64,000 nt of DNA from Sporosarcina sp. BI001-red (GTDB taxonomy: Bacteria > Bacillota > Bacilli > Bacillales_A > Planococcaceae): the NCBI RefSeq assembly GCF_003384035.1, contig NZ_QQAK01000009.1:434001-498000 (forward strand), given 5' to 3'. Shown piece after piece: positions 48,471 to 63,078 of the stretch. Position numbers and translations under genes: made by a program. Position 1 is the first letter of the stretch. Every line of letters starts with the position of its first letter. The notes beneath the pieces are model-generated. The model had not been told where the DNA came from and made no database searches. It saw only the letters and a program-made list of their open reading frames with translations.

Positions 48471-49472
48471 TTGGATACTCAAGAAAATGTGATTGAACAA
48501 AAATGTTTTCAACTACTGCAGAAAGCCATAGACGTAGATGCAACTGACGTCCATCTCGTCCCTACAGAAGAGGGCTATGGCCTATTTCACAAAAAAAGTA
48601 CGAAGCTCGAACGGATCGGCAAACTTCCCCCACAGTTGGCGACCCGAATGATTTCATTCTATAAATTCTTATCTTCCCTCGATATCAGCGACCGCCGAAA
48701 ACCTCAAAGCGGTTCTTTCCACAAACAATTCAACAATCAGAACTTCTCATTTCGAATTTCAACTATTCCGTCTATACATCTAAACGAAAGTGCGGTTATC
48801 CGTATTCAACAGCATGATCGAGTAGTTTCGCTTGATCAGTTATGTCTGGAACCATCCTGGGCAGATATGCTGAAAAACTCTATTACTAAGCAGCAAGGGC
48901 TTTTCATGATCACAGGTCCAACGGGCTCCGGAAAAACCACGACTATCTATTCGTTGACTGCGCACTGCGTCAATGAGTTAGATCGTCATGTGATTACGTT
49001 AGAAGACCCTGTTGAAAATCCTCACAGTCACTTATTGCAAATCCAAGTGAATGAACGTGCTGGAATGTCGTATGCGGCAGGACTCAAAGCAATTTTACGG
49101 CATTCTCCTGATGTCATCATGATTGGTGAAATACGGGATGCTGAAACAGCTAAAATCGCTGTGCAGGCTTCATTAACGGGTCATTTAGTGTTGACGACAG
49201 TCCATGCAAAAGATCCATTAGGCTGCTTTTACAGGATGATGGATTTCGGCATTTCGGCTGAAGAACTTCGACAAACGGCTGTTTGTATCTCCGCTCAACG
49301 CTTGATTCGTAAATCTGATGGAGAACTAGCCGCTGTTTTTGAAATTTATCAAGATGAAGAATTAGAACGTCTTAAAAATTCACTTAGTAATAAGGAACCT
49401 ATCTTCCTCACTGAAGAAGGGAGAGTAGAGGCCCTTGCGAGAAAGTACAGCAGCTCCAATTATTCTTCGTAA
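48471..49472 (+). CDS. comGA: Competence traffic ATPase ComGA
   Basis: ComGA powers assembly of the competence pseudopilus for DNA uptake. The 333-residue secretion ATPase has Walker A GPTGSGKTTTIYSL, an Asp box ITLEDPVE, Walker B GEIRDAETA and a His box (TGHLVLTTVHAKD). TTG 48471 follows GAGAGGGGTG. It is the first gene of comG and overlaps comGB by 38 bp. Nothing in it suggests decay, although comGC downstream is interrupted. Confidence 0.95.
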   Translation: MDTQENVIEQKCFQLLQKAIDVDATDVHLVPTEEGYGLFHKKSTKLERIGKLPPQLATRMISFYKFLSSLDISDRRKPQSGSFHKQFNNQNFSFRISTIPSIHLNESAVIRIQQHDRVVSLDQLCLEPSWADMLKNSITKQQGLFMITGPTGSGKTTTIYSLTAHCVNELDRHVITLEDPVENPHSHLLQIQVNERAGMSYAAGLKAILRHSPDVIMIGEIRDAETAKIAVQASLTGHLVLTTVHAKDPLGCFYRMMDFGISAEELRQTAVCISAQRLIRKSDGELAAVFEIYQDEELERLKNSLSNKEPIFLTEEGRVEALARKYSSSNYSS

Positions 49473-50520
49473 ACGCTGGTATTCAATTAAGAAAGACCCA
49501 TTATTCATCGTGACAGACAAGTCACTATTTTTATTGAGAGCATCTGAATTGCTACAAGAAGGTTATACGATCCATGAATGTTTTTCGTTATTGCTCCCGC
49601 ATCATAGTGCGAATAGTTTGAGCCTAATAACGAAGGTAGAAGACATCTTTAGGGAAGGTGCAAACGTTTCCGAAGTATTAAGAGTGCTTGGATTTCCAGA
49701 TAGGATTTTATTGTCTGTCGAGCTATCCGAGAGTGATGGCAGATTGGCAGAAGCTTTAAATGGCGCCTCTGTTCGTCTAAAAGCTGCGCAAGTGAGAAAG
49801 CAGAAATTCATACAAGCTGCGACCTATCCTGTCGTGCTCATGTTTGCCATGGCACTATTGCTTATCGCGTTTAAAATCTATTTTTTACCGAACTTTGAAA
49901 CCCTAGCAACCTCACGCGCTTCAACGACTCAAGGGGTTGAAAAGTATTTACCTCGTATTGTAGCAAAAGCCCCTGATTTCCTGTTATTTGGTATCGGAAT
50001 GGGGGGAGCATTATTCCTAGTAGGTAGATTCTATTTACGACGATTACACCCAGGAGCAAAAATAAAGAGAGTATTGGCCATCCCGTTTGTTGGTGATATG
50101 TATAGTAGCATTTTGACCCGACTTTTTGCTTCTGAGACCGGGAATTTACTTAGAGCGGGAAATTCAATTCAAGAAGCGATGCTCATTTTAAAGAATCAAC
50201 AAACGGATCTCATTTTAGCACAAGTCGCAACGTCGATTCATGAAGAAGCTGGAAAAGGAGAGCCATTTCATATGGCGATAGAACTAACAGATGGACTTAC
50301 TCGTGACTTATCTTTCTTTGCTAAACATGGTTCTGATAGTGGGCATTTACCGAAGGAGTTACTTCTCTATAGCGAACAGTTAGGTAATGCGATAGATCTA
50401 AAAGTGAACCGGTTGATGGCCATGCTTCAACCTATCTTATTCGTCATTCTAGCGGTGTGTATAATAGCAGCCTATTTAGCACTACTTTTACCCGTCTATG
50501 GAATGATAAAAAACATGTAA
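49435..50520 (+). CDS. comGB: Competence pilus platform protein ComGB
   Basis: This is a PilC/GspF-type inner-membrane platform protein of the competence pseudopilus. The 361-residue protein has two GspF domains and three membrane helices (near 123-145, 178-200 and 335-358). TTG 49435 lies inside the end of comGA with GGGAGAG upstream; later starts are possible. Sequence is intact. Confidence 0.9.
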   Translation: MRESTAAPIILRKRWYSIKKDPLFIVTDKSLFLLRASELLQEGYTIHECFSLLLPHHSANSLSLITKVEDIFREGANVSEVLRVLGFPDRILLSVELSESDGRLAEALNGASVRLKAAQVRKQKFIQAATYPVVLMFAMALLLIAFKIYFLPNFETLATSRASTTQGVEKYLPRIVAKAPDFLLFGIGMGGALFLVGRFYLRRLHPGAKIKRVLAIPFVGDMYSSILTRLFASETGNLLRAGNSIQEAMLILKNQQTDLILAQVATSIHEEAGKGEPFHMAIELTDGLTRDLSFFAKHGSDSGHLPKELLLYSEQLGNAIDLKVNRLMAMLQPILFVILAVCIIAAYLALLLPVYGMIKNM

Positions 50521-50533
50521 AGGAGCAAATTCA

Positions 50534-50755
50534 ATGAAGTTCTTACGGAATGAAAAAGCTTTTACATTAATTGAAATGATGATTGTTTTGCTAATTATTT
50601 CTGTACTCATTTTAGTTGCGATTCCAAATGTGACAAAACACTCCAAATCGATAGATTCGAAGGGCTGCGATGCTTATTTGAATATAATTGTAATGAAAAG
50701 CAACCTATATGAAAAACTCAATGGTTTCAAGGGTTACAGTGTTTTTGAGGAGTGA
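50534..50755 (+). pseudogene. comGC: comGC 5' fragment, interrupted by the mobile element
   Basis: ComGC is the major pseudopilin of the DNA-uptake filament. This part encodes the prepilin leader KAFTLIEMMIVLLIIS, the membrane helix and SKSIDSKGCDA (47 residues). At ATGCTT (50670-50675) the frame enters the element and ends after 26 foreign codons. The rest of the gene is at 60741-60934. Joining at the core gives GCD-A-F-I-K-M-V in frame and a normal 109-residue ComGC. AAAGGAGC precedes the ATG. As it stands the product lacks the C-terminal pilin domain. Confidence 0.93.
50661..50706 (+). repeat. Left junction (attL) of the comGC element
   Basis: Host comGC sequence up to AGGGCTGCG is followed by the core ATGCTT (50670-50675) and the element arm ATTTGAATATAATTG. 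A GCAACCT arm at 50700-50706 is the inverse of AGGTTGC at 60728-60734, so it belongs to the reconstructed phage-type site. Confidence 0.8.
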
Positions 50756-50788
50756 TATATAAATCTAATGGAAGAAGGCGATGGTGAA

Positions 50789-51070
50789 ATGCGGACAGTA
50801 GTAGAGAAATTAAAAGGACAATTGGATATGTTGCCAGGGGCTATCATAATTACAGTTCAGCGCAAAGACTTGGAAATGTTGATACATGAATTGGAAGAGA
50901 AGACGGAAGAGTGGTCAAATCAGTCGTGTTTAGGTTATGTCATTCAGGGGCTAAATGATGCGGGTCTGGATGGAGCGGAGGGAAGAGAGCTTGTGAGGTA
51001 CGTTCAAAGAGCCGCTGATTCGAAAACACTTAAACAGGCAACGTCTATTTTTAAAAAGTCGAGGATATAG
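50789..51070 (+). CDS. Small acidic protein of unknown function at the left end of the element
   Basis: A product of about 93 residues starting MRTVVEKLKGQLD (an upstream in-frame ATG at 50768 would add 7). It is predominantly helical and charged, with no recognised family. Position next to the attachment site is one where recombination-direction factors are sometimes found, but there is no sequence support for that role. The ribosome binding site is weak (GAAGG), so coding status is less certain. Confidence 0.55.
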   Translation: MRTVVEKLKGQLDMLPGAIIITVQRKDLEMLIHELEEKTEEWSNQSCLGYVIQGLNDAGLDGAEGRELVRYVQRAADSKTLKQATSIFKKSRI

Positions 51071-51315
51071 ACGAACAGCAGGCTTGTAACCCTAAAGAAC
51101 ATGAAGTTAAATGTTAAACCATGGAAATTAGTGTTGACAACACTTATAACATAAAAACATGAAAAATAAAAGGTGCTTTTGCCCTATCTTTCAATAAAGT
51201 GTTGAAGTACTATGATGCACGTGATATTGTATTCAACAGAGTAAAGCAACCTTGCGAATTTATTTGTACTGGCTGTTGATATAACAACAAATTAAAAACA
51301 GAAGGAGATTTAAAA

Positions 51316-51924
51316 ATGGGAAGAACAAAAAAGAGTGAGCAATGTAGAACAGTTAGCAAATTATTTCTTGAAAATGATATTGATTTGTCTTTGGTTAGTG
51401 CGGGTGTAACTCTCTATCAGTCATTAGCAAAAGCTGAGGAGCGTACTCGCAAGAGAAAGGACTACGTTGTTAAAGGGATTAAATTCATGTTTGATTCTGA
51501 GGATAGAAAAGCCTTACTTGAAGTAATTAAAGGTGATAAGGATTTTTGGCAAGCGTGGGTAAACCAAAATAAAAGTTTTGAGAGAACAGGACTTGAAAGT
51601 GATAGACCAACTATCCACAGATTGAATCCTGATGGCAACTATGAGATTGGGAATATTGCAGTACTTCCTTATGGAGAACATCAACAGGAACACGCTAAAG
51701 CTGTTTTGATTATTGACACTGATGATTGTGAAATATATAGCCATAAAAGTCTAACAAAAATGGCTCAATCAGAGGGCGTTAAACAATCCAAAGTCAATGC
51801 CATGAGCAAAGCTTTTCGTGAAGACGATGTTTTTCTACAGCAAAAGAAGAAAGCTAAAAAAAAATTAGCTGATAGAAACAGGGAGTTTTGTGAAAAGCAA
51901 GGCATAGAATACCGACCAATTTAG
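51316..51924 (+). CDS. Putative HNH-like/DNA-interacting element protein
   Basis: The function is not recognised. The 202-residue protein has a central segment RPTIHRLNPDGNYEIGNIAV near residues 97-116, which resembles the beta-beta-alpha hinge of HNH/homing-type nucleases (the DGxYExGN pattern). Canonical histidines are only partly present. The C-terminus is Lys-rich. AGAAGGAGAT precedes the ATG, so it is a well-formed gene. It precedes the Rep-like gene. Confidence 0.7.
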   Translation: MGRTKKSEQCRTVSKLFLENDIDLSLVSAGVTLYQSLAKAEERTRKRKDYVVKGIKFMFDSEDRKALLEVIKGDKDFWQAWVNQNKSFERTGLESDRPTIHRLNPDGNYEIGNIAVLPYGEHQQEHAKAVLIIDTDDCEIYSHKSLTKMAQSEGVKQSKVNAMSKAFREDDVFLQQKKKAKKKLADRNREFCEKQGIEYRPI

Positions 51925-51949
51925 AATGGGTGTATTTCTTTTTAGCTCA

Positions 51950-51982
51950 GACAAAGTGCCTTTCTTTTGTGGGTGCTTTGTC
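51950..51982 (+). repeat. Stem-loop upstream of the Rep gene
   Basis: GACAAAGTGCC pairs with GGTGCTTTGTC, allowing two G:U, with an 11-base loop. No clear T-run follows, so termination is less likely. It could be a leader structure or origin-associated hairpin. Confidence 0.5.
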
Positions 51983-52096
51983 GTCCTATAATAACACTAG
52001 GATATGGTTGTTTTTTAGAAATCTAATCTTAGTTTTAATCCTAATTATTAATCAATTAGTAACAACTTCAATGTTGGCAGAAAGAGAGTCGTTTCA

Positions 52097-53050
52097 ATGG
52101 TAGCAGTAATAAACAAAAAAGCAGTAATAGGAAAGAGTATTTCATTCATTTCAAACAGGCATAAGCCTTACTTTGAAGTCGATGAAAACAATGCAATCAC
52201 ATCGTACAAGCGGAGTATTTGCATTGATAGAGTAGAGCTAAAAGTAAGATTAGCAGAGGAAGATATTGAGGAATTCACTTCAATGTTCCGTTACCATATC
52301 GAGCATGACCTAAAGCCGAATGGCTATAATTTAATAACCTATGTCATGGATTTGTCAGAACAATTTGGTGTGTATATCAAGATTCAACCGTTTATCAAAT
52401 CTAAAGTGAATGCAGTGATTCAACTTCAATCCAAATTCACGAACAACCTACAAGGTAACAGCCCCTATATACTTGACCTACTGAACCGCCACAAATGGTT
52501 TATAACCCGGTTAGACGTAGCTTTTGACTATAAGACACCCTTCAATACAAGCGCCTATCTAAGGAGGCATGGAGGGCAAAAACAAAAGAACTATGATACA
52601 TCATCATGGGCGGGTTCAATGAGAAACTATAAGCGTACAGCAAACGATTCCCATTATGACCGCAAGGCGGAGAATGAATCACTGGATAGTCGATATACTA
52701 ATCGTTTTGAGGTCAAGTTAAACTTTCTAGAGAGCGATAATATGACATTTTCTAATCTAAATCATTCATTGATAGCTAACCGTCTACGAGCAGAAATGTT
52801 CATTCCATGCCTAAAATACTCCTATTTTTATGAGCGGAAAGTAAAGACGAACAGAGGGCAGAAGGGCTTCATTGACCTTATCAAGCGTTCCAAAAAAGTG
52901 GAGAACGAAAACTATGTGAAATTGCTCCTTAGTGATAGTCAATGGAAAACATTTCGTAAGCATTTCAAGGCGTGTCGTGATGATATAGAGGATTGGTACT
53001 TGCAGAATAGCCATGTTATATATGATTTTCTGTTGCGAAAAGAAAATTAA
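52097..53050 (+). CDS. Rep_trans-like rolling-circle replication initiator
   Basis: This 317-residue protein resembles pT181-type RepC initiators. Shared features in order are the WFITRLDVAFDYK motif (residues 133-145), a tyrosine-containing HYDRKAEN near residue 195 that aligns with the YNKKQE active-site segment, RFEVKLNF near 211, and LLLSDSQWKTFRKHF near the C-terminus. It would nick the origin and start replication of the excised circle. Recognition is by motif memory, not a search. It is preceded by AGAAAGAGAG and long AT-rich sequence. Confidence 0.6.
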   Translation: MVAVINKKAVIGKSISFISNRHKPYFEVDENNAITSYKRSICIDRVELKVRLAEEDIEEFTSMFRYHIEHDLKPNGYNLITYVMDLSEQFGVYIKIQPFIKSKVNAVIQLQSKFTNNLQGNSPYILDLLNRHKWFITRLDVAFDYKTPFNTSAYLRRHGGQKQKNYDTSSWAGSMRNYKRTANDSHYDRKAENESLDSRYTNRFEVKLNFLESDNMTFSNLNHSLIANRLRAEMFIPCLKYSYFYERKVKTNRGQKGFIDLIKRSKKVENENYVKLLLSDSQWKTFRKHFKACRDDIEDWYLQNSHVIYDFLLRKEN

Positions 53051-53082
53051 TGGGGACAACTCATCTATGAATAACCCTAAGT

Positions 53083-53138
53083 AGGCCGTATACACGTCCT
53101 GTGAGTAACTTCTATACTTTAAGGGGTGTTTACGGTCT
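53083..53138 (+). repeat. Inverted repeat downstream of the Rep gene
   Basis: AGGCCGTATACAC (53083-53095) is imperfectly complementary to GTGTTTACGGTCT (53126-53138), spaced by 30 bp. Similar structures act as replication origins in rolling-circle plasmids; here this is only a structural observation. Confidence 0.4.
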
Positions 53139-53167
53139 TGAGGGCTTATATGAGCGTTTAGGAGTAA

Positions 53168-53425
53168 TTATACCGTAGTGCGTTTAATATTGTATTCTTT
53201 AAATTCGTTTTCCAGTAATTGAACAAATTCAGATGGTTTTATCTCTAATCCATCTGATAACAGAAAAATTGTTGTTATAGTTGGTTGTTTAATATTCCTT
53301 TCCATCATGCTGATATAAGTTCTATCTAAACTGCTTCTATGAGCTAACTCCTCTTGTGATAGTTTCAGAGATTTACGTAGCCTTTTTAAAACCGCACCAA
53401 CTGTAATATTTTCAATTTCATTCAA
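53168..53425 (-). CDS. Xre-family helix-turn-helix regulator
   Basis: This 85-residue repressor-like protein has an HTH of the Cro/CI type (LKLSQEELAHRSSLDRTYISMMERN, described here by its first and last positions near residues 23-47). TTG 53425 is used since AAAAAGGAG lies nine bases upstream. It is the only gene on the minus strand of the element, placed between rep and the following gene; it may control rep or recombination genes. Confidence 0.82.
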   Translation of the reverse strand: MNEIENITVGAVLKRLRKSLKLSQEELAHRSSLDRTYISMMERNIKQPTITTIFLLSDGLEIKPSEFVQLLENEFKEYNIKRTTV

Positions 53426-53659
53426 GAGATAAATCTCCTTTTTAAACAATTACAATGGTAAAAAGCATTCATAACCACGTACTACAGTCTACAAAAAAGA
53501 ATAAGTATCATTAACTTGAGGTGTATAGTAAAATATACACTGTATACTATAGTCTCATTTTACGTTGTGAAAAAGTGTTTTTTATTTGTGTTATTAAGCC
53601 GAGGTTATTTGGTCTGTGTAATGGGCGTTGAAATGAAATAGCAGCAAGGAGTGGTAGGT

Positions 53660-54391
53660 ATGATGAAAAATAAGGTTTTTAGAGGGTTTTTATTCTATGC
53701 ATCTGCGACTTTCATAATTATAAGCGTATTTGCAGGAGTCTCATGGTTGTTTTATTACCAAGATGAGGTAGATAACAAGAAAACACTGGCAAATCAAAAA
53801 AAGTCTTTCTATGACGAACAAATGAAGTTACTCAAAGAGGTTTCAAATGATAATAAATCTGAAGAAAGCTTGGAAGTTGCTATGATTTCATATGATATTA
53901 TCAAGGAGATTGAACGTGATGATAGTTATTATCAGAGATATGAAGATGGTAATGAGTATTTGGAGAAGTTGGAAGTAGAGACCACGAAAAGGCTTAATGA
54001 TTCTCTCGAATATCTGTTAGGTAAGGAGTACGATGCTGAGGTATACGGTGAGCTTATGGATTTTTATAGAGAAATCCCTGATTACATCAGTAAAGAGAAT
54101 TCGGTTTTATTGGCGCAAGCAGAAAAAATAGCGGATGAAGAATTGCAAACTGAGATTGCCAAGATAGAAGAAGAGAACAAAGATAAAAAGAAGTATACAC
54201 ATGAAAATAGAAAGAGAGCTTTGCAATCAATTTTCCAAACAGGTATGTCAGTTAGTGAAGTGAAGAGTGCAATCGGCCCTCCAACTAAGAAATACAGAAG
54301 TGACGAAGCCGAATTTTGGAACTATGAAGATGCCGTGATTTTAACAATAAAGAACGGATTCGTGTATGACATTACATATCCTTCTAATTGA
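53660..54391 (+). CDS. Membrane-anchored protein with SmpA-like C-terminal domain
   Basis: This protein of about 243 residues has an N-terminal membrane anchor (residues 8-32), a long helical and highly charged middle part, and a C-terminal segment FQTGMSVSEVKSAIGPPTKK that resembles the start of SmpA/OmlA-fold domains. That points to an exported, surface-side location. Function is unknown. AAGGAG lies ten bases before ATG 53660. It is followed by a terminator. Confidence 0.75.
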   Translation: MMKNKVFRGFLFYASATFIIISVFAGVSWLFYYQDEVDNKKTLANQKKSFYDEQMKLLKEVSNDNKSEESLEVAMISYDIIKEIERDDSYYQRYEDGNEYLEKLEVETTKRLNDSLEYLLGKEYDAEVYGELMDFYREIPDYISKENSVLLAQAEKIADEELQTEIAKIEEENKDKKKYTHENRKRALQSIFQTGMSVSEVKSAIGPPTKKYRSDEAEFWNYEDAVILTIKNGFVYDITYPSN

Positions 54392-54413
54392 GTACAAATT
54401 ATTTTATGAAGTT

Positions 54414-54443
54414 GGAGGTAGAGTTTATAGCTCTACCTTTTTC
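54414..54443 (+). terminator. Terminator after the membrane-anchored element protein
   Basis: AGGTAGAG pairs with CTCTACCT around a 7-base loop, followed by TTTTC. It starts the 416-bp non-coding stretch to the resolvase. Confidence 0.75.
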
Positions 54444-54698
54444 TATACGCATCGGTAGCAAAAATGAATGACCGTTACCTCAGGCGAGACGATAGCTTTT
54501 AGTGGGAATGACATTTAGTCATTGATGAATCAAGATGAAATACAAATAAAACCTGTATAACTCTCGTCACATGATTGATGAGACATATAGTGACGGTACG
54601 TAAGTAAAAACTTATCATTGTTTGAACTGTGTGATTATGGAAGATTATTTTCACGCAGAAACATAGGCTTTAACGATGGCGCTTACAGAAGCACTTCT

Positions 54699-54780
54699 GG
54701 TGTCGTAACTTAAAAGTATTGACACCGAAAGCCTGACGCCGTAATATCAAGGTATCGAATGGTGTCACATCAAGGTGTCA
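54699..54780 (+). promoter_or_regulatory. Candidate res site upstream of the small resolvase
   Basis: A cluster of six related hexamers occurs within 82 bp: GGTGTC (54699), GACACC (54721), GACGCC (54735), GGTATC (54751), GGTGTC (54761) and GGTGTC (54774). The first two form an inverted pair. Several spaced half-sites just before a resolvase gene are the layout expected of a res recombination site. Confidence 0.5.
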
Positions 54781-54807
54781 TAAATATATGTGGAACGAGG
54801 AAATGAA

Positions 54808-55386
54808 ATGACAGTATATGGATATGCGAGGGTATCGACTAAGGGACAAGACCTAGAGGTACAGATTACGGACTTAACCAGGGAGAATGTTGAACACATC
54901 TATCAAGAGAAGTTCACAGGTACTTCAACTGACAGACCGCAACTAAAAGAACTGCTTAACATCTTGCAAGGTGGCGACAAATTGGTTGTAACCAAATTAG
55001 ACCGCTTGGCAAGAAATACAAGGGAAGGAATTGATTTAATAAATTCCCTATTTGAAAAGGGAGTTAAGGTTCATGTTTTAAATGTTGGCTTACTAGAAGA
55101 CACAAGTATGGGGAGATTCTTTTTAACAACACTATTGGCGGTTGCTGAAATGGAACGTAACATGATTGTTGAGCGTACACAGGAAGGAAAAGCGATTGCA
55201 AGACTGAATCCCAACTATCGTGAGGGTCGTAAACCTACATATACAAAGGCGCAGTTAGAACATGCTCTAAGCATGTTGGAGGGTCATTCCTACAATCAAG
55301 TGGCAGAAAAGACGGGTATCAGTAAAAGCACTCTAATCAGAGCCATGAATAAGCGTAAGGCAAAAGAAGCGACTCGGGATAGCTAA
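54808..55386 (+). CDS. Small serine recombinase (resolvase/invertase family)
   Basis: This 192-residue serine recombinase starts [14 protein letters not shown] with the nucleophile Ser10. The catalytic domain includes [12 protein letters not shown] and the long helix [14 protein letters not shown]. The C-terminal Hin-type DNA-binding HTH is [23 protein letters not shown] lies upstream of ATG 54808. It probably resolves multimers of the excised circle using the res-like cluster upstream; an inversion role cannot be excluded. Confidence 0.9.
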
Positions 55387-55759
55387 TAAGTATCGGTGAC
55401 ATTCGGCTGAAGACTTTGCGAAATGGAGTGCTTTTGCGAAGGTGACGTTCAGGTAATTAGATAAGAAAATGAGTATTCCGTTAGGCTTTTTTTCTTATCT
55501 AATTACTTCATGAATTCTTGTGAAATATTGATTTTATTAATAGGGTAGTAAGTTGTTCTAAAGATAGTCTGAGAGGTTGTAGAAGCGTCACAGTACCTCT
55601 TTGAAACTGGGGTTGATATACAAACAAGCAGAGAAGTTCGAAGGGCATCAACGGGTCGTTTAATGGGTAGCCCATCCTTTCCGATATTCGATAAAAGTAT
55701 AAAATGGAATATGCCGTACCAGATGCACACACACACCGAAAGAGAAGGAGCGAAACGAC
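55387..55759 (+). other. 373-bp intergenic region between the two recombinase genes
   Basis: No coding sequence is supported. It contains a direct repeat GGTGACATTC (55395) / GGTGACGTTC (55441), a repeated TTTGCGAA between them, and the perfect 17-bp inverted repeat described separately. The remainder before the large recombinase shows nothing convincing apart from a ribosome binding site (AGAAGGAG). Confidence 0.6.
55453..55506 (+). terminator. Perfect 17-bp inverted repeat, probable terminator
   Basis: GTAATTAGATAAGAAAA (55453-55469) is perfectly complementary to TTTTCTTATCTAATTAC (55490-55506). It lies after the small resolvase and has a T-run inside the right arm. It could end the resolvase transcript or be a recombinase-binding dyad. 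Confidence 0.55.
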
Positions 55760-57508
55760 ATGACGGGAAATAGAGTAGTAGTTTATACGAGGGTTTCAAC
55801 AGACAAAGAGGAGCAGAAAAAGTCTTTGGAGAATCAGATGCAGATTTACACTGACTATTGCAATCATAAAAATCTAGAGTTAGTTGAAATCTATGCTGAT
55901 GAAAGAAGTGGAACAAATGCGAGGCGTAAAGGCTTCATTAGAATGATGTATGATGCGGGATTGAACTACATAAAGGATGATGAGAATGTTGATACCTTTG
56001 TTACTACAAAGAGAGAGCCAAAATTTGACCTAATCATAGTCAAAGATACAACCAGATTCAGCAGAAATGCAGAGATAGCGGAATCAGTTGTCAAACGATT
56101 AATGAGAATGGGAGTACAAATATTGTTTGAAAATGTAAACCTTAAAACGTCTGATGAAAATTGGGGGTTAATTGGTAGCTTTCTTTTCAAAATGGGGGAA
56201 AATGAGTCAGCTAGTTTAGGTAAGAAAATCAGACAAACGAAGTATTATAACGCTATAAATATGAGGTATAGACCTGCCAGGCTTCCATATGGCTACACTT
56301 GGGATGAGGAAAGAAACATTGTAAAAGTTCCAGAACAGGCGGAAATTGTGGAACGTATTTACAATAGTTACGCTAAAAAAGGTTCTATGATATTAACGAA
56401 GGAATTAAACAATGAAGGGATTAAAACCCAAAAAGGTCATGAGTGGTCGGGGGACAAAATAACACGTATTATTAAGAATCGTATTTACACAGGTACAGCG
56501 GTTGTTAACCGCTCTTACAAAGCTAATGTGACAGACACAAAGCGCTTACAACGTGATGAGAGTGAGTACATCCTCATTCCAAATGCAGTACCATCTATCG
56601 TTACATTAAAGCAGTACGAAGAGGTGAATAAGATACGGGAAAGCCGAATCAATAAATCTGATAAGAATAGACGTGGTCGGAAGATTTCTTATGATGATAT
56701 CTACTTTCAGAAAATAAAATGTGGTTCGTGTGGTAAAGGGTTTAAGAAGCACACAACTATAGGCAGTGGTAAAAAGAAGAAAATCAATTACATGTGTATG
56801 GGAAGAGCAAAGGGTAACAACTGCAATACTAGGGGAATTGCATTGAACAATCTGGACAAGGGATTAAGTGAAATAACAATAAATTCCCATGTAGAATCAA
56901 TAAAGGAGCAAGTAGAGTTCATGCAGTTAATGGATAGATTAGAAATTGAGCTTGAACGCATTGAAGAAAGTAGAAGTCAATTACAGGAGGAATTGAGTGA
57001 GCTAAAAAGTGATTGTGATAGATTTTTGAGTACGATAGATAGCTACAGAAAAAATGGACAGGAGAAATTAGCTTTGGGTTTTGAAATAAAGTATGACAAC
57101 GCTACACTGGAACTAGGGGCATTAGAAACGCAACTTGCGGATATAAGCTTTGAAAAGATTCAAAGGTTAAAAATCAAAGTGGAGCATAAGAAAGAGCTTA
57201 TTCAGCAATTAACCCATAGCAAGAGTTTAAGTAATGAGGGAAAACTTAAACTCCTAAAGAAGGTTGTTGTGACTGACTATGAGCTTGAATACTTCTTTAC
57301 AATGCCAAATTATGACGACGAAATCCAAGAGTTCAATAGTATTTTCAAGGGAAATCCAATCGAAAATGGATTTCAACCGAATTCTAGTGGAATTACTGTA
57401 AGAAGAAATCATAAAGAAGCTCGGGAGTATTTCAAACAGCTAATCGAGAGTTATGAAGACTGGGATAATTTTAAACGAGATTATCCATATCAGGATTGTG
57501 GAGATTAA
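55760..57508 (+). CDS. Large serine recombinase (integrase of the comGC element)
   Basis: This 582-residue site-specific recombinase probably drives integration into and excision from comGC. The N-terminal resolvase domain has VVYTRVSTDKEEQ with nucleophile Ser13 and KDTTRFSRN near residue 95. The recombinase domain is at about 160-290, and the zinc ribbon uses C321, C324, C346 and C355. A coiled-coil region (about 385-490) precedes a C-terminal tail. AGAAGGAGCG precedes the ATG. It stands inside the element, about 3.2 kb from the right junction, not adjacent to an att site as is common. Confidence 0.95.
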   Translation: MTGNRVVVYTRVSTDKEEQKKSLENQMQIYTDYCNHKNLELVEIYADERSGTNARRKGFIRMMYDAGLNYIKDDENVDTFVTTKREPKFDLIIVKDTTRFSRNAEIAESVVKRLMRMGVQILFENVNLKTSDENWGLIGSFLFKMGENESASLGKKIRQTKYYNAINMRYRPARLPYGYTWDEERNIVKVPEQAEIVERIYNSYAKKGSMILTKELNNEGIKTQKGHEWSGDKITRIIKNRIYTGTAVVNRSYKANVTDTKRLQRDESEYILIPNAVPSIVTLKQYEEVNKIRESRINKSDKNRRGRKISYDDIYFQKIKCGSCGKGFKKHTTIGSGKKKKINYMCMGRAKGNNCNTRGIALNNLDKGLSEITINSHVESIKEQVEFMQLMDRLEIELERIEESRSQLQEELSELKSDCDRFLSTIDSYRKNGQEKLALGFEIKYDNATLELGALETQLADISFEKIQRLKIKVEHKKELIQQLTHSKSLSNEGKLKLLKKVVVTDYELEYFFTMPNYDDEIQEFNSIFKGNPIENGFQPNSSGITVRRNHKEAREYFKQLIESYEDWDNFKRDYPYQDCGD

Positions 57509-57560
57509 GCAGACTGAAAGACTAAGTCCGGAAGGGTTACTGGAGTTTCTTCTATATGGA

Positions 57561-57604
57561 TTGTGCGATTCATTTGACCTAAATGAATCGCACAATTTTT
57601 TTGT
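57561..57604 (+). terminator. Terminator after the large serine recombinase
   Basis: TGTGCGATTCATTT pairs with AAATGAATCGCACA around 5 bases, followed by ATTTTTTTG. The remaining AT-rich region up to 57803 shows no gene. Confidence 0.88.
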
Positions 57605-57803
57605 ATTATAATGAGCTTGTTTTTCTTAAAGCAAGTAGTCATAGCATCGGGTTTTATTAGAGTGCCAAAGATTAATAACAGAAATTACTTTCAATAATAC
57701 ATACAAGTGATAAAATAGGATTAAAGCCACTAAACTATAACAACTTTTTGGTAGATAAATAGTCATCTGAAATGAAAAATGCAATATAAATTCAGGGTTA
57801 GCT

Positions 57804-57809
57804 ATAATT
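57804..57809 (+). promoter_or_regulatory. -10 box of the nuclease/ATPase operon
   Basis: A perfect TATAAT lies about 22 bp before the TTG start of the nuclease gene; the matching -35 (TGCAAT, 17 bp upstream) is weak. An independent promoter fits the strong terminator upstream. Confidence 0.5.
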
Positions 57810-57830
57810 AATCTTTAAGGGGCGAACATA

Positions 57831-58811
57831 TTGACCGAACAAAAGAGGATAGACAATGGCGGAGCAGAAGCTATACGAGGTTTTAATTTCCAAAAAGCAA
57901 ACCTAATTTTATTGGCAATTAATAATTATATGAAACCAAATTTCAAGATTTATGTTGAAGCTGAAGATGATATCGTTGTAACTTTTGATGATTATAAGGC
58001 AATTATTCAAGTGAAGAAACAAAGTCATACATTTAATAGTCTTACGAAAAAAGAAAAACCTAAAGGTTTAAATAAAGACGGTAGTAAAAAAAATACTGAA
58101 AAACTATCAATATTAGAGAAAAATTTGAGTGCCGGTGAAAAGGATGATGTCTTCAAAATATTTGTCAAAGATATAGGTAAAACAGATAAAAAACGATTAA
58201 TAGTTAAGAAGCCTGGACAAATCTGCGTCAATTTACACCAACTGAATGATGAAGCAAAAACTGAAATTCTTTCCAAGTTGCCTAGCGAAGATAAAACTAA
58301 ACTTGATAACTTTTATTTGCATATTTCACCACTCGGCGAAGAATATGATGATGCTCAAACCTATTTAATTGGTACTTTAAATAAAAATGATATTTCTGTA
58401 GATAATAATCAAGGACGAGCAATTATTGCAGAACTCACTCTTAACATTGACCATAAATCGCAACATATAATTCAAGATATTTCTGACAAGGAATTAAAGT
58501 ACATGGATTCTGAGTACTTTTCAAATATTTTTATAACCTCTACTGCGATTATTAAGTTTGAGAAGGTATTAGATACCCTTCAATATGGTGATATAAAAAG
58601 TACAAGAATTAAAAAGGAAAGACTGAAAATTGATTTAACAAGAGTTACATTAAAAGAAGACATAAAAGGTTTTATCCAAAGCTTGGATGACGTAGAAGAT
58701 TTGTCGAATTTAGAAATTGTAAAAATAGTGTTAGAGAAATATTTGGATAAAGACGACCAAAATTTATTAATTGCTATAGCAATTGAAGCCATCTGTGAAA
58801 TTGGGGAGTGA
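57831..58811 (+). CDS. Cap4/DUF4297-like nuclease, Lamassu LmuA-like
   Basis: This 326-residue protein begins with a nuclease-like segment of the DUF4297/Cap4 kind. GGAEAIRGFNFQKANLILL (residues 10-28) is followed by EAEDD at 43-47 and IIQVKKQ at 58-64, a PD-(D/E)xK-type arrangement. The remaining 200 residues resemble no family I can name. It is followed after 6 bp by a Rad50/SMC-like ATPase. That pairing is seen in Lamassu (LmuA+LmuB) and in related ABC-three-component defence systems. TTG 57831 follows AAGGGGCG. Confidence 0.7.
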   Translation: MTEQKRIDNGGAEAIRGFNFQKANLILLAINNYMKPNFKIYVEAEDDIVVTFDDYKAIIQVKKQSHTFNSLTKKEKPKGLNKDGSKKNTEKLSILEKNLSAGEKDDVFKIFVKDIGKTDKKRLIVKKPGQICVNLHQLNDEAKTEILSKLPSEDKTKLDNFYLHISPLGEEYDDAQTYLIGTLNKNDISVDNNQGRAIIAELTLNIDHKSQHIIQDISDKELKYMDSEYFSNIFITSTAIIKFEKVLDTLQYGDIKSTRIKKERLKIDLTRVTLKEDIKGFIQSLDDVEDLSNLEIVKIVLEKYLDKDDQNLLIAIAIEAICEIGE

Positions 58812-58817
58812 TACGAA

Positions 58818-60482
58818 GTGATAATTGAAAATATCATCATACATGATTACATAAATAATGGGATTAATAAATTCACTTTTGATTCAAGGGTTAATCTATT
58901 TGTAAGCAAAACAAATACTATAGGGAAATCAAGCTTAATGAAATCCATATATCATACTTTGGGGTATAGCATAAAAATTTGGCCTAGTGAATGGAATGCA
59001 AAAGATATGATATTTCAGTTGAATATTTTGATTAACAATGAAAGATATTCTATTACTAGACATAAAGACTTGTTTTACATAAACGGAAAAGAAAGTATAT
59101 TAAATGAACAAGAATATTCTAGTTGGTTACAGGATTTATTGAAAATAGAAATAAAGATAAAAAGTAAAAAAAATAAAAAGCTTACAAATGTCTATGCAAG
59201 TGAAGTATTGCTACCTTTTTACATTGACCAGGATAAGTCTTGGAATGGTTATGTCTTCTCAAAGTCTTCCGATTCATACGGTAGATATAGTGATACAGTT
59301 AAAGATATATTCAATTTCTATTTTGATATAACCAATAATAAAATCCTGGATTTAGAAGTTGAGAAGAGCGAATTAGAATTGAAAATAAAAACAATTGACA
59401 AAAAAGGAGAAGGATTAGCCCTTATAGGAGACGAATTCCAACCTAAAGAAACACAGGTTTATGTTTCGAAAGTCGAGGAATTAGAAAATAGCTTAAGTGA
59501 AATTCAACTAAATAACTATCTCGAAAAACTAAATATCATAAATTCTTCTTTAGCTGAAAACGATAAAGAAATAATTGAATTAGATAAAAAAATTAACATA
59601 CTAAATCGAGATTTAGTAGAATTAGAAAAACTAAAATCATCCTACTCAAAGAGGTTTGAAGATATTAAGCATAAATGTATATATTGTAATTCAAATCTCA
59701 CTGACGAACAGTCATTAACTAGACTTAAAATCAGAAATAACTTATTTGAAATTACTGAACAAACTGATAAAAATAAGCTTAAATTTAATAGCCTAAAGTT
59801 AGAAAGGGATAGAAAGATTGATAAGAAAGATGAACTTGTTTCTGAACAATTTACCTATGAGAATATCGTTAATAACAGCAGAGAAGTAGAAAATCTTATA
59901 GAAAATATAGTCAAACAAGAAATGTTTAATAACTATGTAAGTATAGAACAGGAACTAATCCTCTCTAAAAATTCAACTATAGAAGAAATAAATACCATCA
60001 AAAATTCAATTAAAGCAGAAAAGAAGGTAGGAAACAAAAAACGTACTGTCATAAGAAAAAAATATATGGAATTACTTAGTCAATATGAGCTAAACCTACG
60101 GAAGGTAAAATTAGATGAAATTAAACTTTATAATTTCAAAGAAGTTTCTGGTAGTGGTAATGACTCTAATAAAAAAATGCTAGCTATATACATATTATAC
60201 TCAAATCTAATCAGCCAGTTTTCAAATGTAGAAATTCCTTTTGGTATGGACTCTTTTATTAAAAATGAAACTTCCGTTGAATTTAAAGAAGAGATGTTTG
60301 GTTTTCTATCCAAGTATTATTTAACTATTCCGAGCCAAGTGTTTTTTTCGATTATAGATGAAAACATAATCTATTTAGACTCGGAAATGGATTATAACAA
60401 AATTGAATTGGAACGACCAATATTAAAGGAAGTAAATAAAGGAAATCAACACCTTTTAGAACATTTTACTTTTATTGAATAG
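58818..60482 (+). CDS. Rad50/SMC-like ATPase with CxxC hook, Lamassu LmuB-like
   Basis: This 554-residue ABC ATPase has a split head. The N-terminal P-loop region is TNTIGKSSLMK (G36-K37-S38; the first P-loop glycine is replaced by K31), and a Q-loop-like LPFYIDQDKSW lies at 132-142. A long coiled-coil (about 175-435) contains the hook C287-IY-C290, and the C-terminal half has VSGSGNDSNK and the Walker-B-like IPFGMDS (473-479). GTG 58818 follows GGGGAGTG. It is probably the sensor ATPase that controls the upstream nuclease; a repair role is the alternative. Confidence 0.75.
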   Translation: MIIENIIIHDYINNGINKFTFDSRVNLFVSKTNTIGKSSLMKSIYHTLGYSIKIWPSEWNAKDMIFQLNILINNERYSITRHKDLFYINGKESILNEQEYSSWLQDLLKIEIKIKSKKNKKLTNVYASEVLLPFYIDQDKSWNGYVFSKSSDSYGRYSDTVKDIFNFYFDITNNKILDLEVEKSELELKIKTIDKKGEGLALIGDEFQPKETQVYVSKVEELENSLSEIQLNNYLEKLNIINSSLAENDKEIIELDKKINILNRDLVELEKLKSSYSKRFEDIKHKCIYCNSNLTDEQSLTRLKIRNNLFEITEQTDKNKLKFNSLKLERDRKIDKKDELVSEQFTYENIVNNSREVENLIENIVKQEMFNNYVSIEQELILSKNSTIEEINTIKNSIKAEKKVGNKKRTVIRKKYMELLSQYELNLRKVKLDEIKLYNFKEVSGSGNDSNKKMLAIYILYSNLISQFSNVEIPFGMDSFIKNETSVEFKEEMFGFLSKYYLTIPSQVFFSIIDENIIYLDSEMDYNKIELERPILKEVNKGNQHLLEHFTFIE

Positions 60483-60547
60483 GAATTTAATATCGGGAAC
60501 TATTCGAAGTAATTAGGGAAAGATAAAAGGTGCTATAGTCAAACGAT

Positions 60548-60598
60548 AAAAATCCTCCATTGATAAATGAATGGAGGATTTTTAACTTTTTTTTTTTA
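60548..60598 (+). terminator. Terminator after the nuclease/ATPase operon
   Basis: AAAAATCCTCCATT pairs with AATGGAGGATTTTT, followed by a run of twelve T at about 60587-60598. It would also stop readthrough into the comGC 3' fragment. Confidence 0.88.
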
Positions 60599-60727
60599 CA
60601 AATGCTCGTCTCTAATTAAAACAATAATCAAAATTGCAGTATTAAACTATTCTTTTTAATTAGGTTCTTTCTATATAATATGTGCGATTTATCAACCAAA
60701 AATGAGTCAGACATTTAGTGTGTTAAA

Positions 60728-60760
60728 AGGTTGCATTTCAATGCTTTTATAAAAATGGTG
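60728..60760 (+). repeat. Right junction (attR) of the comGC element
   Basis: The element arm AGGTTGCATTTCA ends at the core ATGCTT (60741-60746), after which host comGC resumes (TTATAAAAATGGTG). Joining this arm to the left junction arm rebuilds a site with TTCAA-N7-TTGAA symmetry centred in the core and outer AGGTTGC/GCAACCT arms. Confidence 0.8.
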
Positions 60761-60934
60761 GAGGGACAAGTTCAAGCATACAAGATGGATACCAATGAAA
60801 TCCCTACAAGCTTGGCGGATCTTACGGCAAAGGATTATTTACCTAAGGACGCTAAATGTCCAGATGGTACAGAACTGACTATAGAAGCGGATGGAAAAGT
60901 TATCAATCCAAAGGCAACTTCTAGTAAGCAATGA
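60741..60934 (+). pseudogene. comGC: comGC 3' fragment
   Basis: This part encodes the C-terminal pilin domain beginning FIKMVEGQVQAYKMD and containing SLADLTAKDYLPKDAKCPDG. The cysteine in AKCPDG is the partner of the cysteine in KGCDA of the 5' fragment, which forms the ComGC disulfide. It has no credible start codon with a ribosome binding site of its own. The stop overlaps the comGD ATG by 4 bp. Confidence 0.92.
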
Positions 60935-61368
60935 CAAGTTCGTCTGAACACGGAATGACATTTTTGGAGTTGCTTCTCGTCCTCACAATTTTGGGGGTTC
61001 TGACGGTGATTGTTATACCCGTCAGTAGTGGTTGGACAACTGAGCAAACAGAAAGAGATGCACTTGAAGCGTTTAAAGCGACTGTGCAGCAGATGCAAGC
61101 ACATTCAATTGCTCATGAAACCATAACTTGGCTCGGGTTCTCAAATGGAGGAAAAACATATACAGTGACTTACTTTGATACAAATGAAAAGATAATAAGT
61201 CATTTTCCTCCGACCATTAAATTCGACCACACGAGTACATTACGGAATGTAAGTTTTCAAGGGAATGGCAATATGTACAATACCGGAACCTTGACCTTTG
61301 AAACTGCAAGCGGAACGAAGAAAATTAAGTTTCAGTTTCAAAGGGGAAGGATGTTACTGTATGAATGA
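60931..61368 (+). CDS. comGD: Competence pseudopilin ComGD
   Basis: This minor pseudopilin has 145 residues. The prepilin cleavage motif and helix read EHGMTFLELLLVLTILGVLT, cut before Met by ComC. A soluble C-terminal domain follows. The ATG overlaps the comGC stop. With comGC split, it is cut off from the comGA promoter by the element's terminators. Confidence 0.9.
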   Translation: MTSSSEHGMTFLELLLVLTILGVLTVIVIPVSSGWTTEQTERDALEAFKATVQQMQAHSIAHETITWLGFSNGGKTYTVTYFDTNEKIISHFPPTIKFDHTSTLRNVSFQGNGNMYNTGTLTFETASGTKKIKFQFQRGRMLLYE

Positions 61369-61657
61369 ATCTGGGTACTCTTGGCCGGAAGCGATTTTAA
61401 CGTTAACGATTATGATGGTCATTTTTAGCACTCTACTGCCATTGTCGTTTCGAATGCTTACCGGATTGGAAGATAAAAAACATGAAATGAGAGCAAAAGA
61501 GACCATGTACCAAGGGGCATTGCTCTATACAACCTATGGAATTACAGATGGAGTTCGAACTGAGAACGGTGCTGAATATGTCTGGACGGCAGAAAATGGT
61601 CGACTTTGCGTTACCTATCCATCCTCTACTAAAACGGAAAAGACGTGTACACCGTGA
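61361..61657 (+). CDS. comGE: Competence pseudopilin ComGE
   Basis: This minor pseudopilin has 98 residues with N-terminal NESGYSWPEAILTLTIMMV, a less canonical prepilin motif, and one hydrophobic helix. ATG 61361 follows AAGGGGAAGG and overlaps comGD by 8 bp. Confidence 0.82.
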   Translation: MNESGYSWPEAILTLTIMMVIFSTLLPLSFRMLTGLEDKKHEMRAKETMYQGALLYTTYGITDGVRTENGAEYVWTAENGRLCVTYPSSTKTEKTCTP

Positions 61658-62097
61658 ACAAGGTTCGTAATGAATCGGGATACACATTGCTTGAAAGTTT
61701 GTTTCAACTAATTATTGCTGCTACTTTCCTTCATTTGATTGTCCTATTTCTCCTTTTTAAGGAGTCCACACATCATCAATTGACAGATAGTCAAACGACT
61801 GAATGGGAATTATTTATGGTTGATTTGCAACTAGACTTATCAGTTGTACAAACGATTAACGTCAATGATACGGGGACTGTCTTAACTGTTTATTCGATGG
61901 ATGTAGAAGATAACAAAGAATACTCCACCGTAGGAGGAGTTGTCCGGAGGAGAGTTGGAAATCAAGGACATGTTCCGTTACTGACATATGTGCAGTCTGT
62001 CAGATTTATAGATGAAGGCCCAATGGTTGCGGTCTCTGTAACGCTCCAAGATGGAACGGAGCGGTTAAGGAGGGTTGCAGTTGGACTTCGTGAATGA
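61645..62097 (+). CDS. comGF: Competence protein ComGF
   Basis: This minor pseudopilin-like protein has about 150 residues with NESGYTLLESLFQLIIAATF at the N-terminus, then a beta-rich domain with the ComGF-typical RRRVGNQGHVPLLTYV. It overlaps comGE by 13 bp. GTG 61645 is chosen, but GTG 61654 is equally possible; ribosome binding signals are weak for both, so translation is likely coupled. Confidence 0.85.
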   Translation: MYTVNKVRNESGYTLLESLFQLIIAATFLHLIVLFLLFKESTHHQLTDSQTTEWELFMVDLQLDLSVVQTINVNDTGTVLTVYSMDVEDNKEYSTVGGVVRRRVGNQGHVPLLTYVQSVRFIDEGPMVAVSVTLQDGTERLRRVAVGLRE

Positions 62098-62257
62098 TGA
62101 ACGTGGAGTGGCACTTATGATGGCACTTGCATTATTATTTTTCGTCTCCCTCTTTCTTTTTACATTCGTTTCATGGCATAGTAGTTTATATGGATCGTAT
62201 GATTCGCTGGGAACGATTTACGAGAAGGCAGCGATAACAAAAATGCAGAGCGGATGA
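62081..62257 (+). CDS. comGG: ComGG-like protein, short form
   Basis: This short protein of 58 residues has a positively charged-to-hydrophobic N-terminal segment (NDERGVALMMALALLFFVSL) and ends soon after the helix. B. subtilis ComGG is about 124 residues, so the C-terminal domain is missing. TTG 62081 lies six bases after AAGGAGGG. It overlaps comGF, ends comG and lies 4 bp before aroK. Confidence 0.7.
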   Translation: MDFVNDERGVALMMALALLFFVSLFLFTFVSWHSSLYGSYDSLGTIYEKAAITKMQSG

Positions 62258-62910: not shown

Positions 62911-63078
62911 CGGATGAATACATGGGGAGAGAGCGCACAAAGCGCCGCCGAAGGAGCAAGTGACAATGTCATGAATCTCTCAGGCAAAAAGACTCATGTT
63001 GGACGCATCTCTGAACAGTGTTGGCTAAAGCCAGCCTCTGAAATTAGCCCCCGCAATGGGGAGCGTTCAGGAGATTGG
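62911..63078 (+). ncRNA. Glycine riboswitch aptamer (gcvT motif)
   Basis: The conserved glycine-aptamer elements occur in order: GGGGAGAGAGC, GCCGCCGAAGGAGCAAG and AATCTCTCAGGCAAAAAGAC (to about 63000). ACATG at 62920 pairs with CATGT near 62997 as the P1 stem. The following domain lacks the second CCGAAGG junction, so this looks like a single aptamer with a structured 3' partner (ATCTCTGAAC with GTTCAGGAGAT). Glycine would control the downstream gcv genes. Confidence 0.9.

What the first reader, a model, noticed from the sequence alone, without database searches (positions are those of the whole stretch)
50534..60934. comGC is split by a 10,071-bp recombinase element, and removal at the shared core restores the gene in frame
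Seen directly: the 5' part ends at GGC TGC GAT GCT and the 3' part begins with TTT ATA AAA ATG GTG. ATGCTT occurs at both junctions (50670 and 60741). Excision gives GCDAFIKMVEGQVQAYKMD, the expected pseudopilin join, and a 109-residue ComGC. The element carries its own large serine recombinase. By analogy with the Listeria comK prophage, this could be a reversible switch of competence (inference).
Basis: partly seen in the sequence, partly recalled or inferred. Interest (0 to 1): 0.95.

Follow-up and report, generated by a model that had tools for sequence, protein, structure and literature searches.

The report
Defence element splits competence gene comGC
A 10-kb mobile element carrying genes that match the Lamassu anti-phage defence system sits inside comGC, the gene for the main subunit of the DNA-uptake pilus, at the same codon that related phages and elements occupy in five other bacterial species, and it likely switches off natural DNA uptake for as long as it stays there.

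Summary
Element, coordinates, length (10,071 bp) and in-frame reconstruction of a 109-residue ComGC are real; the stated crossover is not. ATGCTT is incidental. The predicted core is AA at 50681-50682 / 60752-60753: joined there, the circle has a 50-bp attP with 19 of 24 symmetric arm positions, and the gene reads GCDAYLKMVEGQ, as in four of five closest relatives (the fifth has GCAAYLKM).

LSR relatives occur in 6 of 261 family genomes, own included; in all six comGC is split at codon 50. Two inserts are tailed prophages (30 and 28 kb). Four are 10-18 kb elements sharing a predicted rolling-circle Rep, orf202 and a small resolvase, with variable cargo (Lamassu here).

Serine-integrase prophages in comGC/comYC are published, but two printed att sites (pneumococcus, Macrococcus) fall in the pilin motif, elsewhere in the gene. 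So: a new variant of a known kind. Loss of competence is likely but untested. A reversible switch is possible but unsupported: no excised form or directionality factor is known; comG genes show no clear decay.

The parts
48471..49472 (+). comGA (competence pilus ATPase)
   Evidence: ORF of 333 aa; tblastn matches left of five other interrupted comGC genes; gene name from family knowledge
49435..50520 (+). comGB
   Evidence: ORF of 361 aa; same order in relatives; name from family knowledge
50534..50682 (+). comGC 5' part, codons 1-49 plus the two core bases AA, which are the first two bases of codon 50 on joining
   Evidence: N_methyl motif 1e-08; 49 codons differ from five relatives by 1-3.5 nonsynonymous changes
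50657..50706 (+). predicted attL: attB left half + AA core (50681-50682) + attP right arm TATAATTGTAATGAAAAGCAACCT (50683-50706)
50768..51070 (+). orf100, unknown; next to attL
   Evidence: no match in Pfam, PADLOC, PHROGs or NCBIfam
51316..51924 (+). orf202, conserved element gene of unknown function
   Evidence: 27-29% identity to genes in the G108, G104 and G258 elements (G258 weakly, E 4e-4)
52097..53050 (+). rep317, predicted rolling-circle replication initiator / Rep_trans-like relaxase
   Evidence: model pLDDT 78.6; Foldseek 4cwe RepDE E 1.5e-6, prob 1.00, TM 0.47-0.53; relatives in 3 other comGC elements; no Pfam or meaningful PDB sequence match
53168..53449 (-). HTH_3 repressor-like gene
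   Evidence: PF01381 1.8e-14
53651..54391 (+). orf246, unknown; hydrophobic N-terminus by eye
   Evidence: no family match
54790..55386 (+). small serine resolvase/invertase
   Evidence: PF00239 1.2e-37, PHROG DNA invertase 3.3e-65; 67% identical relative in the G258 element
55760..57508 (+). large serine recombinase (integrase)
   Evidence: S13 and Cys 321, 324, 346, 355 invariant in 6 of 6 relatives, which I read as the catalytic serine and zinc-ribbon cysteines (family knowledge; Zn_ribbon_recom 24.2 bits is just under its cut-off)
57831..58811 (+). lmuA, Lamassu effector (by homology)
   Evidence: PADLOC LmuA 6.8e-96; PDB 9ux7_C LmuA 1.4e-42 over residues 6-326
58818..60482 (+). lmuB, Lamassu SMC-like ATPase (by homology)
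   Evidence: PADLOC LmuB 8.1e-161; PDB 9ux7_A LmuB 2.9e-83
60728..60772 (+). predicted attR: attP left arm AGGTTGCATTTCAATGCTTTTATA (60728-60751) + AA core (60752-60753) + attB right half
60752..60934 (+). comGC 3' part, codons 50-109 and stop
   Evidence: 60 codons, open; 5-19 nonsynonymous differences from five relatives
60931..61368 (+). comGD
   Evidence: NCBIfam ComGD 4.5e-16 (below its cut-off); matched in 60 of 61 genus genomes, own included
61361..62097 (+). comGE and comGF (named by position), open

Best explanation
A 10,071-bp element carrying a large serine recombinase, a predicted Rep gene and a Lamassu-type gene pair splits comGC at codon 50; it was likely inserted there by that recombinase, which would recombine a 50-bp attP on the element's circle with a conserved comGC attB across an AA core, and it is predicted to abolish the competence pilus, and so transformation, until excised. 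Shown by sequence: the anatomy, the symmetric attP, the in-frame wild-type-like join, and the same codon being split in five other genomes with related recombinases. Inferred: the enzyme acts on these sites; truncated ComGC (73-residue ORF) is non-functional; Lamassu is active. The likely advantage to the element is that a non-transformable host cannot remove it by recombination with imported element-free DNA (the chromosomal-curing idea of PMC4774983 and PMC12637031), while Lamassu would exclude phages and competing plasmids. Whether excision happens often enough to act as a switch is open.
For: attP symmetry 19/24 at AA versus at most 10 at any other matching dinucleotide near the junction and at most 12 in 120 other registers. 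The same register is best within 20 bases in 6 of 6 elements and first of 121 registers in 5 of 6. The joins of three Planococcus/Planomicrobium elements give KGCKAFVQMVQGQVES, against KGCKAFVQMVQGQVESYRMD in 6 of 7 intact relatives fetched; the seventh has Y for F. LSR relatives: 6 of 261 family genomes, all six elements in comGC. Of 58 loci found in named genomes, the 6 that match over more than 400 residues at 35-41% have the comGC 3' part downstream; the other 52, weaker or shorter matches and some on short contigs, show none at E 0.01. Lamassu identity. Other competence genes remain: an open ComEC-family gene and ComK-family genes.
Against: No experiment and no reads: neither integration, excision nor loss of transformation is shown, and nothing I read shows natural transformation in this organism. 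G258's attP is only weakly symmetric (12 of 24, tied for first with one other of 121 registers and so ranked second; 2.3% of positions reach it). In G221 (same genus) the left junction is at the same codon, but the two bases there read GC and the contig ends within about 1.7 kb, so the core rule is not proven there.
Confidence: 0.85

Rival explanations
1. One reading: crossover at ATGCTT and a reversible, regulated competence switch like the Listeria comK prophage.
For: ATGCTT is shared by both junctions; the join is in frame; recombinase and att sites look intact; comG genes show little or no decay.
Against: attP symmetry at ATGCTT axes is 5-10 of 24; the join gives F where 28 of 28 relatives have Y; no directionality factor, circle or same-strain empty site is known; no record covering 80% of the LSR at E 1e-30 in 50,697 phage records and no Rep match in 72,556 plasmid records.
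Confidence: 0.1
2. A locked element: integrated once, unable to excise, so comGC is simply dead and the strain is permanently non-transformable.
For: No directionality factor identified; the assembly shows one LSR copy and only the two comGC pieces, no intact comGC. comGC 3' has pN/pS above the sister range in three of five comparisons and comGF in one of five, a faint hint of relaxation.
Against: The main element genes are open; both att sites look intact; comGC 3' and downstream comG frames are open. A recent insertion would also look like this.
Confidence: 0.35
3. A phage satellite that shares its integration site and recombinase type with helper prophages.
For: Tailed prophages in Planococcus halocryophilus and Savagea serpentis use related recombinases at the same codon.
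Against: No packaging or capsid-related match among the nine element proteins scanned; a rolling-circle-type Rep fold and a resolvase point to plasmid/IME ancestry. Helper prophages elsewhere in the genome were not sought; only this LSR was.
Confidence: 0.12

Closest known systems
Serine-integrase prophages in comYC/comGC of Streptococcus, and a related prophage in Lactococcus (PMC4774983, PMC8637289, PMC11357604; passages read)
   Same: Mobile element inserted inside the major competence pilin gene; argued to block transformation and so chromosomal curing
   Different: Those are prophages; the printed pneumococcal PPH100 att site translates to LVEML, the pilin motif, about 35 codons upstream of the site here; the printed 10-base S. 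agalactiae att could not be placed and lactococcal sites were not seen; INPHARED holds no record matching 80% of this LSR at E 1e-30
Macrococcus prophage phiMC1 in comGC (PMC6008420, PMC12016501; passages read)
   Same: Insertion in comGC in Bacillales, proposed loss of transformation
   Different: ~50-kb prophage; printed att translates to TLIEM in the pilin motif
Listeria comK prophage (active lysogeny; mentioned in PMC7029219 and PMC4774983 passages, otherwise recalled)
   Same: Integrase-borne insertion in a competence gene whose excision restores it
   Different: Excision was shown there; here nothing is shown, and no phage structural gene was found in the element
Integrative and mobilizable elements with Rep_trans/MobT proteins (PMC5704250, PMC5357655; passages read)
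   Same: Smaller than ICEs, serine integrase in some, Rep_trans-related protein, disruption of dispensable genes
   Different: oriT, coupling protein and transfer not shown here; 'competence' and 'comG' do not occur in the main text of PMC5704250, 'comGC' not in PMC5357655
Lamassu (LmuA-LmuB) defence system
   Same: Both proteins nearly full length to the profiles and adjacent
   Different: No third component LmuC seen; a review says it is lacking in some systems (PMC10586767, passage)

Membership tests
LSR element targeting comGC/comYC | insertion interrupts the comGC reading frame | tested here: met
LSR element targeting comGC/comYC | large serine recombinase encoded by the element | tested here: met
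Pneumococcal/Macrococcus comGC prophage group | same attachment site in the gene | tested here: not met
   printed PPH100 and phiMC1 att sites translate to the pilin motif, not codon 50; a third printed att (S. agalactiae) could not be placed
Pneumococcal/Macrococcus comGC prophage group | integrase of the same family (SP670_2190-like) | tested here: inconclusive
   only 3 partial relatives in INPHARED at E 1e-30; SP670_2190 itself was not compared
Serine integrase att site | attP about 50 bp, symmetric around a central dinucleotide identical in attL and attR | tested here: met
   rule from PMC3783163 passages
Reversible gene switch (active lysogeny) | precise removal would restore the reading frame | tested here: met
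   by sequence only:
Reversible gene switch (active lysogeny) | excised and integrated forms coexist or alternate under regulation | not testable with these tools
   no reads or cultures
Lamassu | adjacent LmuA effector and LmuB SMC-like ATPase | tested here: met
Lamassu | anti-phage or anti-plasmid activity | not testable with these tools
   homology only
Integrative and mobilizable element | own integrase plus relaxase or Rep_trans-type protein, no mating apparatus | tested here: inconclusive
   integrase met; Rep fold match is moderate; no conjugation gene among the nine proteins scanned; oriT not sought
Tailed prophage | capsid, portal, tail and lysis genes | tested here: not met
   nine element proteins scanned against PHROGs: only a regulator, recombinases and one unknown family

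The most novel reading that the evidence does not exclude
A family of comGC-resident, plasmid-like defence elements alternates between two states: integrated, it turns DNA uptake off; excised, it replicates as a circle through its rolling-circle Rep, so the cell regains a wild-type ComGC and can transform without losing the element or its Lamassu shield. Competence would then be gated by a defence element rather than by a phage.
Probability: 0.12. Interest if true: 0.85.

Novelty: new variant of a known kind. Interest (0 to 1): 0.52.

Why it matters
It adds a further integration site in the major competence pilin gene, used by phages and by small elements, some with defence genes, in four genera of one family, with the crossover predicted to two bases. 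Repeated attacks on one 109-codon gene by unrelated machinery (this LSR group, a second LSR group near codons 24-27 in two genomes, and an insert encoding TnsD in one) support the idea that mobile elements gain by silencing transformation. Because this element carries defence genes and no detected virion genes, it lets one test whether blocking uptake and excluding foreign DNA act together. The predicted attP/attB pairs are also candidate serine-integrase tools.

Tried and rejected
ATGCTT as core: rejected (attP symmetry, residue at codon 48). Chance or assembly error: unlikely, since five other genomes are interrupted at the same codon. Circular plasmid form in PLSDB: Rep had no match; LSR matches were partial, none covering 80%, the 15 listed of 81 at 27-29%. 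Free phage form in IMG/VR: 28 LSR relatives, none with comG pieces at E 0.01. Decay of comG genes as a clock: no clear decay, but synonymous changes are near saturation, so it cannot date the insertion. Rep identity by sequence: no meaningful PDB match; only the fold search spoke. Directionality factor: none identified; orf100 has no match in the four libraries. Rfam gave only a glycine riboswitch; no tRNA gene was found in the window. Placing the printed S. agalactiae att by translation gave nothing usable.

Print searches, all in one open-paper library: 'Lamassu'+'comGC' 0 papers; 'comGC'+'serine recombinase' 2, both pneumococcal; 'comGC'+'prophage' 41, 25 listed; 'comYC'+'prophage'+'insertion' 12; four of five terms on defence islands and natural transformation 27, 15 listed; 'Lamassu'+'plasmid'+'natural transformation'+'mobile genetic element' 12; two of three terms on IME/MobT/serine integrase 22, 10 listed; three of 'Sporosarcina', 'competence', 'prophage', 'comG' 94, 8 listed.
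Full report
What is there. The window (G000:C9:434001-498000, a 3.5-Mb genome) carries the comG operon. comGC is cut: codons 1-49 lie at 50534-50680 and codons 50-109 at 60752-60931, 10,071 bp apart in register. No call names the organism. So it is a member of the Planococcaceae (family name from my knowledge); Sporosarcina is my guess from the best named Rep relative.

The crossover. For each dinucleotide identical in both junctions I rebuilt attP and counted complementary positions between its 24-bp arms. AA at 50681-50682/60752-60753 gives AGGTTGCATTTCAATGCTTTTATA-AA-TATAATTGTAATGAAAAGCAACCT, 19 of 24; ATGCTT positions give 5-10. Positions within the element reach 19 or more at a rate of 0.0001 (n = 9,820), and AA ranks first of 121 registers. 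A 50-bp attP around a central dinucleotide is what serine integrases bind (PMC3783163, passages). The join gives GCDAYLKMVEGQVQAYKMD. Of 29 relative loci from the genus, 28 showed the motif uninterrupted, all 28 with Y at codon 48; L035 was not matched by the pattern. The five closest, with ComGD 73-82% identical, are all uninterrupted; four read GCDAYLKMVEGQVQAYKMD and one (G212) GCAAYLKMVEGQVQAYKMD.

The same site elsewhere. LSR relatives at E 1e-60 occur in 6 of 261 genomes of the family, own included; a profile search at E 1e-100 over 261 genomes (asked as 'order') returned the same six. In the five others the comGC 5' part matches through codon 48 and the 3' part resumes at codon 50, or 51 in G258's alignment. 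In all six the best matching dinucleotide within 20 bases is the first two bases of codon 50: AA, CA, CA, CA, AA, AG in G000, G087, G108, G104, G148, G258, with arm symmetry 19, 15, 15, 17, 15, 12. Over 121 registers this position is first in five and ranked second, tied at 12, in G258, where 2.3% of element positions score as high. Three joins give KGCKAFVQMVQGQVES, the sequence of 6 of 7 intact Planococcus-group genes fetched, the seventh differing by Y for F. In named genomes the LSR profile found 58 loci. The 6 that match over more than 400 residues at 35-41%, including Lederbergia citri, have comGC 3' downstream; the other 52 show none at E 0.01, though some are short contigs. G221, of the window's genus, has a left junction at the same codon with a closely similar attP right arm, but its contig soon ends and the two core bases read GC.

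Two kinds of passenger. G087 (29,991 bp) and G148 (28,477 bp) are tailed prophages: head, tape-measure and Dit matches in three G087 proteins scanned, and Dit, tail or neck-appendage and endolysin matches in four G148 proteins. G000 (10,071), G108 (10,912), G104 (14,330) and G258 (18,265) share relatives of orf202, rep317, the small resolvase and the LSR in that order (orf202 in G258 only at 4e-4). Not every gene of those three was scanned. Rep has no Pfam or meaningful PDB sequence match, but its model (pLDDT 78.6) matches the rolling-circle initiator RepDE (4cwe, E 1.5e-6, TM 0.47-0.53); the match is moderate, so 'predicted'. Eight contig lengths, own included, recur in both the Rep list (38 proteins) and the LSR list (50 proteins), which suggests linkage but is only a length coincidence. 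In the family, Rep matches occur in 7 of 261 genomes: four in comGC elements, three others partial or broken. Cargo varies: here lmuA-lmuB between LSR and attR, G+C 0.28 against 0.36 for the rest of the element; in G258 an AAA ATPase-HNH pair (PADLOC PDC-M62A/B) in the same slot and a restriction-enzyme-like gene near attL; in G104 an Abi-alpha gene; the two G108 cargo proteins scanned against PADLOC matched nothing.

Lamassu. LmuA and LmuB match PADLOC profiles at 6.8e-96 and 8.1e-161 and the solved pair 9ux7 at 1.4e-42 and 2.9e-83. A review says Lamassu restricts plasmids and phages, thought to be by abortive infection (PMC10586767, passages). Activity here is untested.

Function. The 5' fragment runs into the element as a 73-residue ORF without the pilin's C-terminal part, and no intact comGC was found elsewhere in the genome, so no full ComGC can be made while the element is in place; loss of transformation is inferred from the known need for ComGC. 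Other machinery examined is present: one ComEC-family domain over cut-off and four ComK-family matches, three near full length. pN/pS of the comG genes against five relatives lies mostly within the range between those relatives. The exceptions are comGC 3', where three of five values (0.158, 0.158, 0.188) exceed the sister range (0.049-0.141), and comGF, where one of five (0.281) exceeds it (0.159-0.251). So there is no clear decay; recent insertion, slight relaxation and recurrent excision all fit.

Comparison with print. Insertion of prophages into comYC/comGC is established in Streptococcus, Lactococcus and Macrococcus, with serine integrases named in the pneumococcal and S. agalactiae papers, and is interpreted as anti-transformation (PMC4774983, PMC12637031, PMC6008420, PMC12016501, PMC11357604, PMC8637289: passages read). 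Printed att sites for pneumococcal PPH100 and Macrococcus phiMC1 translate to LVEML and TLIEM, the prepilin motif, not codon 50; the S. agalactiae site could not be placed and the lactococcal one was not seen. The LSR has only 3 partial relatives at E 1e-30 among 50,697 phage records. I therefore file this as a new variant: known strategy, with a different site from those two and, as far as tested, another integrase lineage, in a plasmid-like, defence-carrying vehicle.

Switch or block. A reversible switch is not excluded but nothing supports it specifically. PMC12637031 suggests that even transient restoration of a disrupted competence gene would likely enable transformation (passage), which would make frequent excision costly to an element that gains from blocking transformation. 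The bold alternative, that excised circles replicate through Rep so that the cell becomes competent while keeping the element, is set out as the novel case.

Noticed in passing
G048 (L143, L144) and G163 (L145, L146): comGC is split at about codons 24-27 by ~55- and ~41-kb inserts with a different LSR group (80% identical to each other, 21-22% to the LSR here).
   Followed up: partly
G110, L147-L148: comGC is split at about codon 43 by a ~26-kb insert encoding a TnsD protein (PF15978, 9e-91): apparently a Tn7-like element in the competence pilin gene; its ends were not mapped.
   Followed up: partly
L149 (G221:C87): Same genus as the window: left junction at comGC codon 50 with a closely similar attP arm; contig soon ends, core reads GC, and no comGD match was found in that genome.
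   Followed up: partly
L041/L050 (Viridibacillus arenosi element): Septu-like AAA ATPase-HNH pair in the slot between LSR and attR and a methyl-directed restriction-enzyme-like gene near attL.
   Followed up: partly
L059 (Lederbergia citri): LSR relative followed by the comGC 3' part; left end not reached; one neighbour matches a cation efflux family.
   Followed up: partly
six comGC att sites: The predicted core dinucleotide varies (AA, CA or AG) with the host's codon 50, so integrases of this group seem to track the host codon.
   Followed up: no
window 62914-63005 +: Glycine riboswitch (Rfam RF00504, 71 bits).
   Followed up: no
window 62075-62257 +: The ORF at the comGG position is only 60 aa and ends just before the next ORF; the matching 60 codons have high pN/pS among the relatives (0.198-1.087).
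   Followed up: no
G140, G009, G010: Family genomes without a ComGC match at E 0.001, G140 being a single-contig genome; possible loss or divergence of comGC.
   Followed up: no
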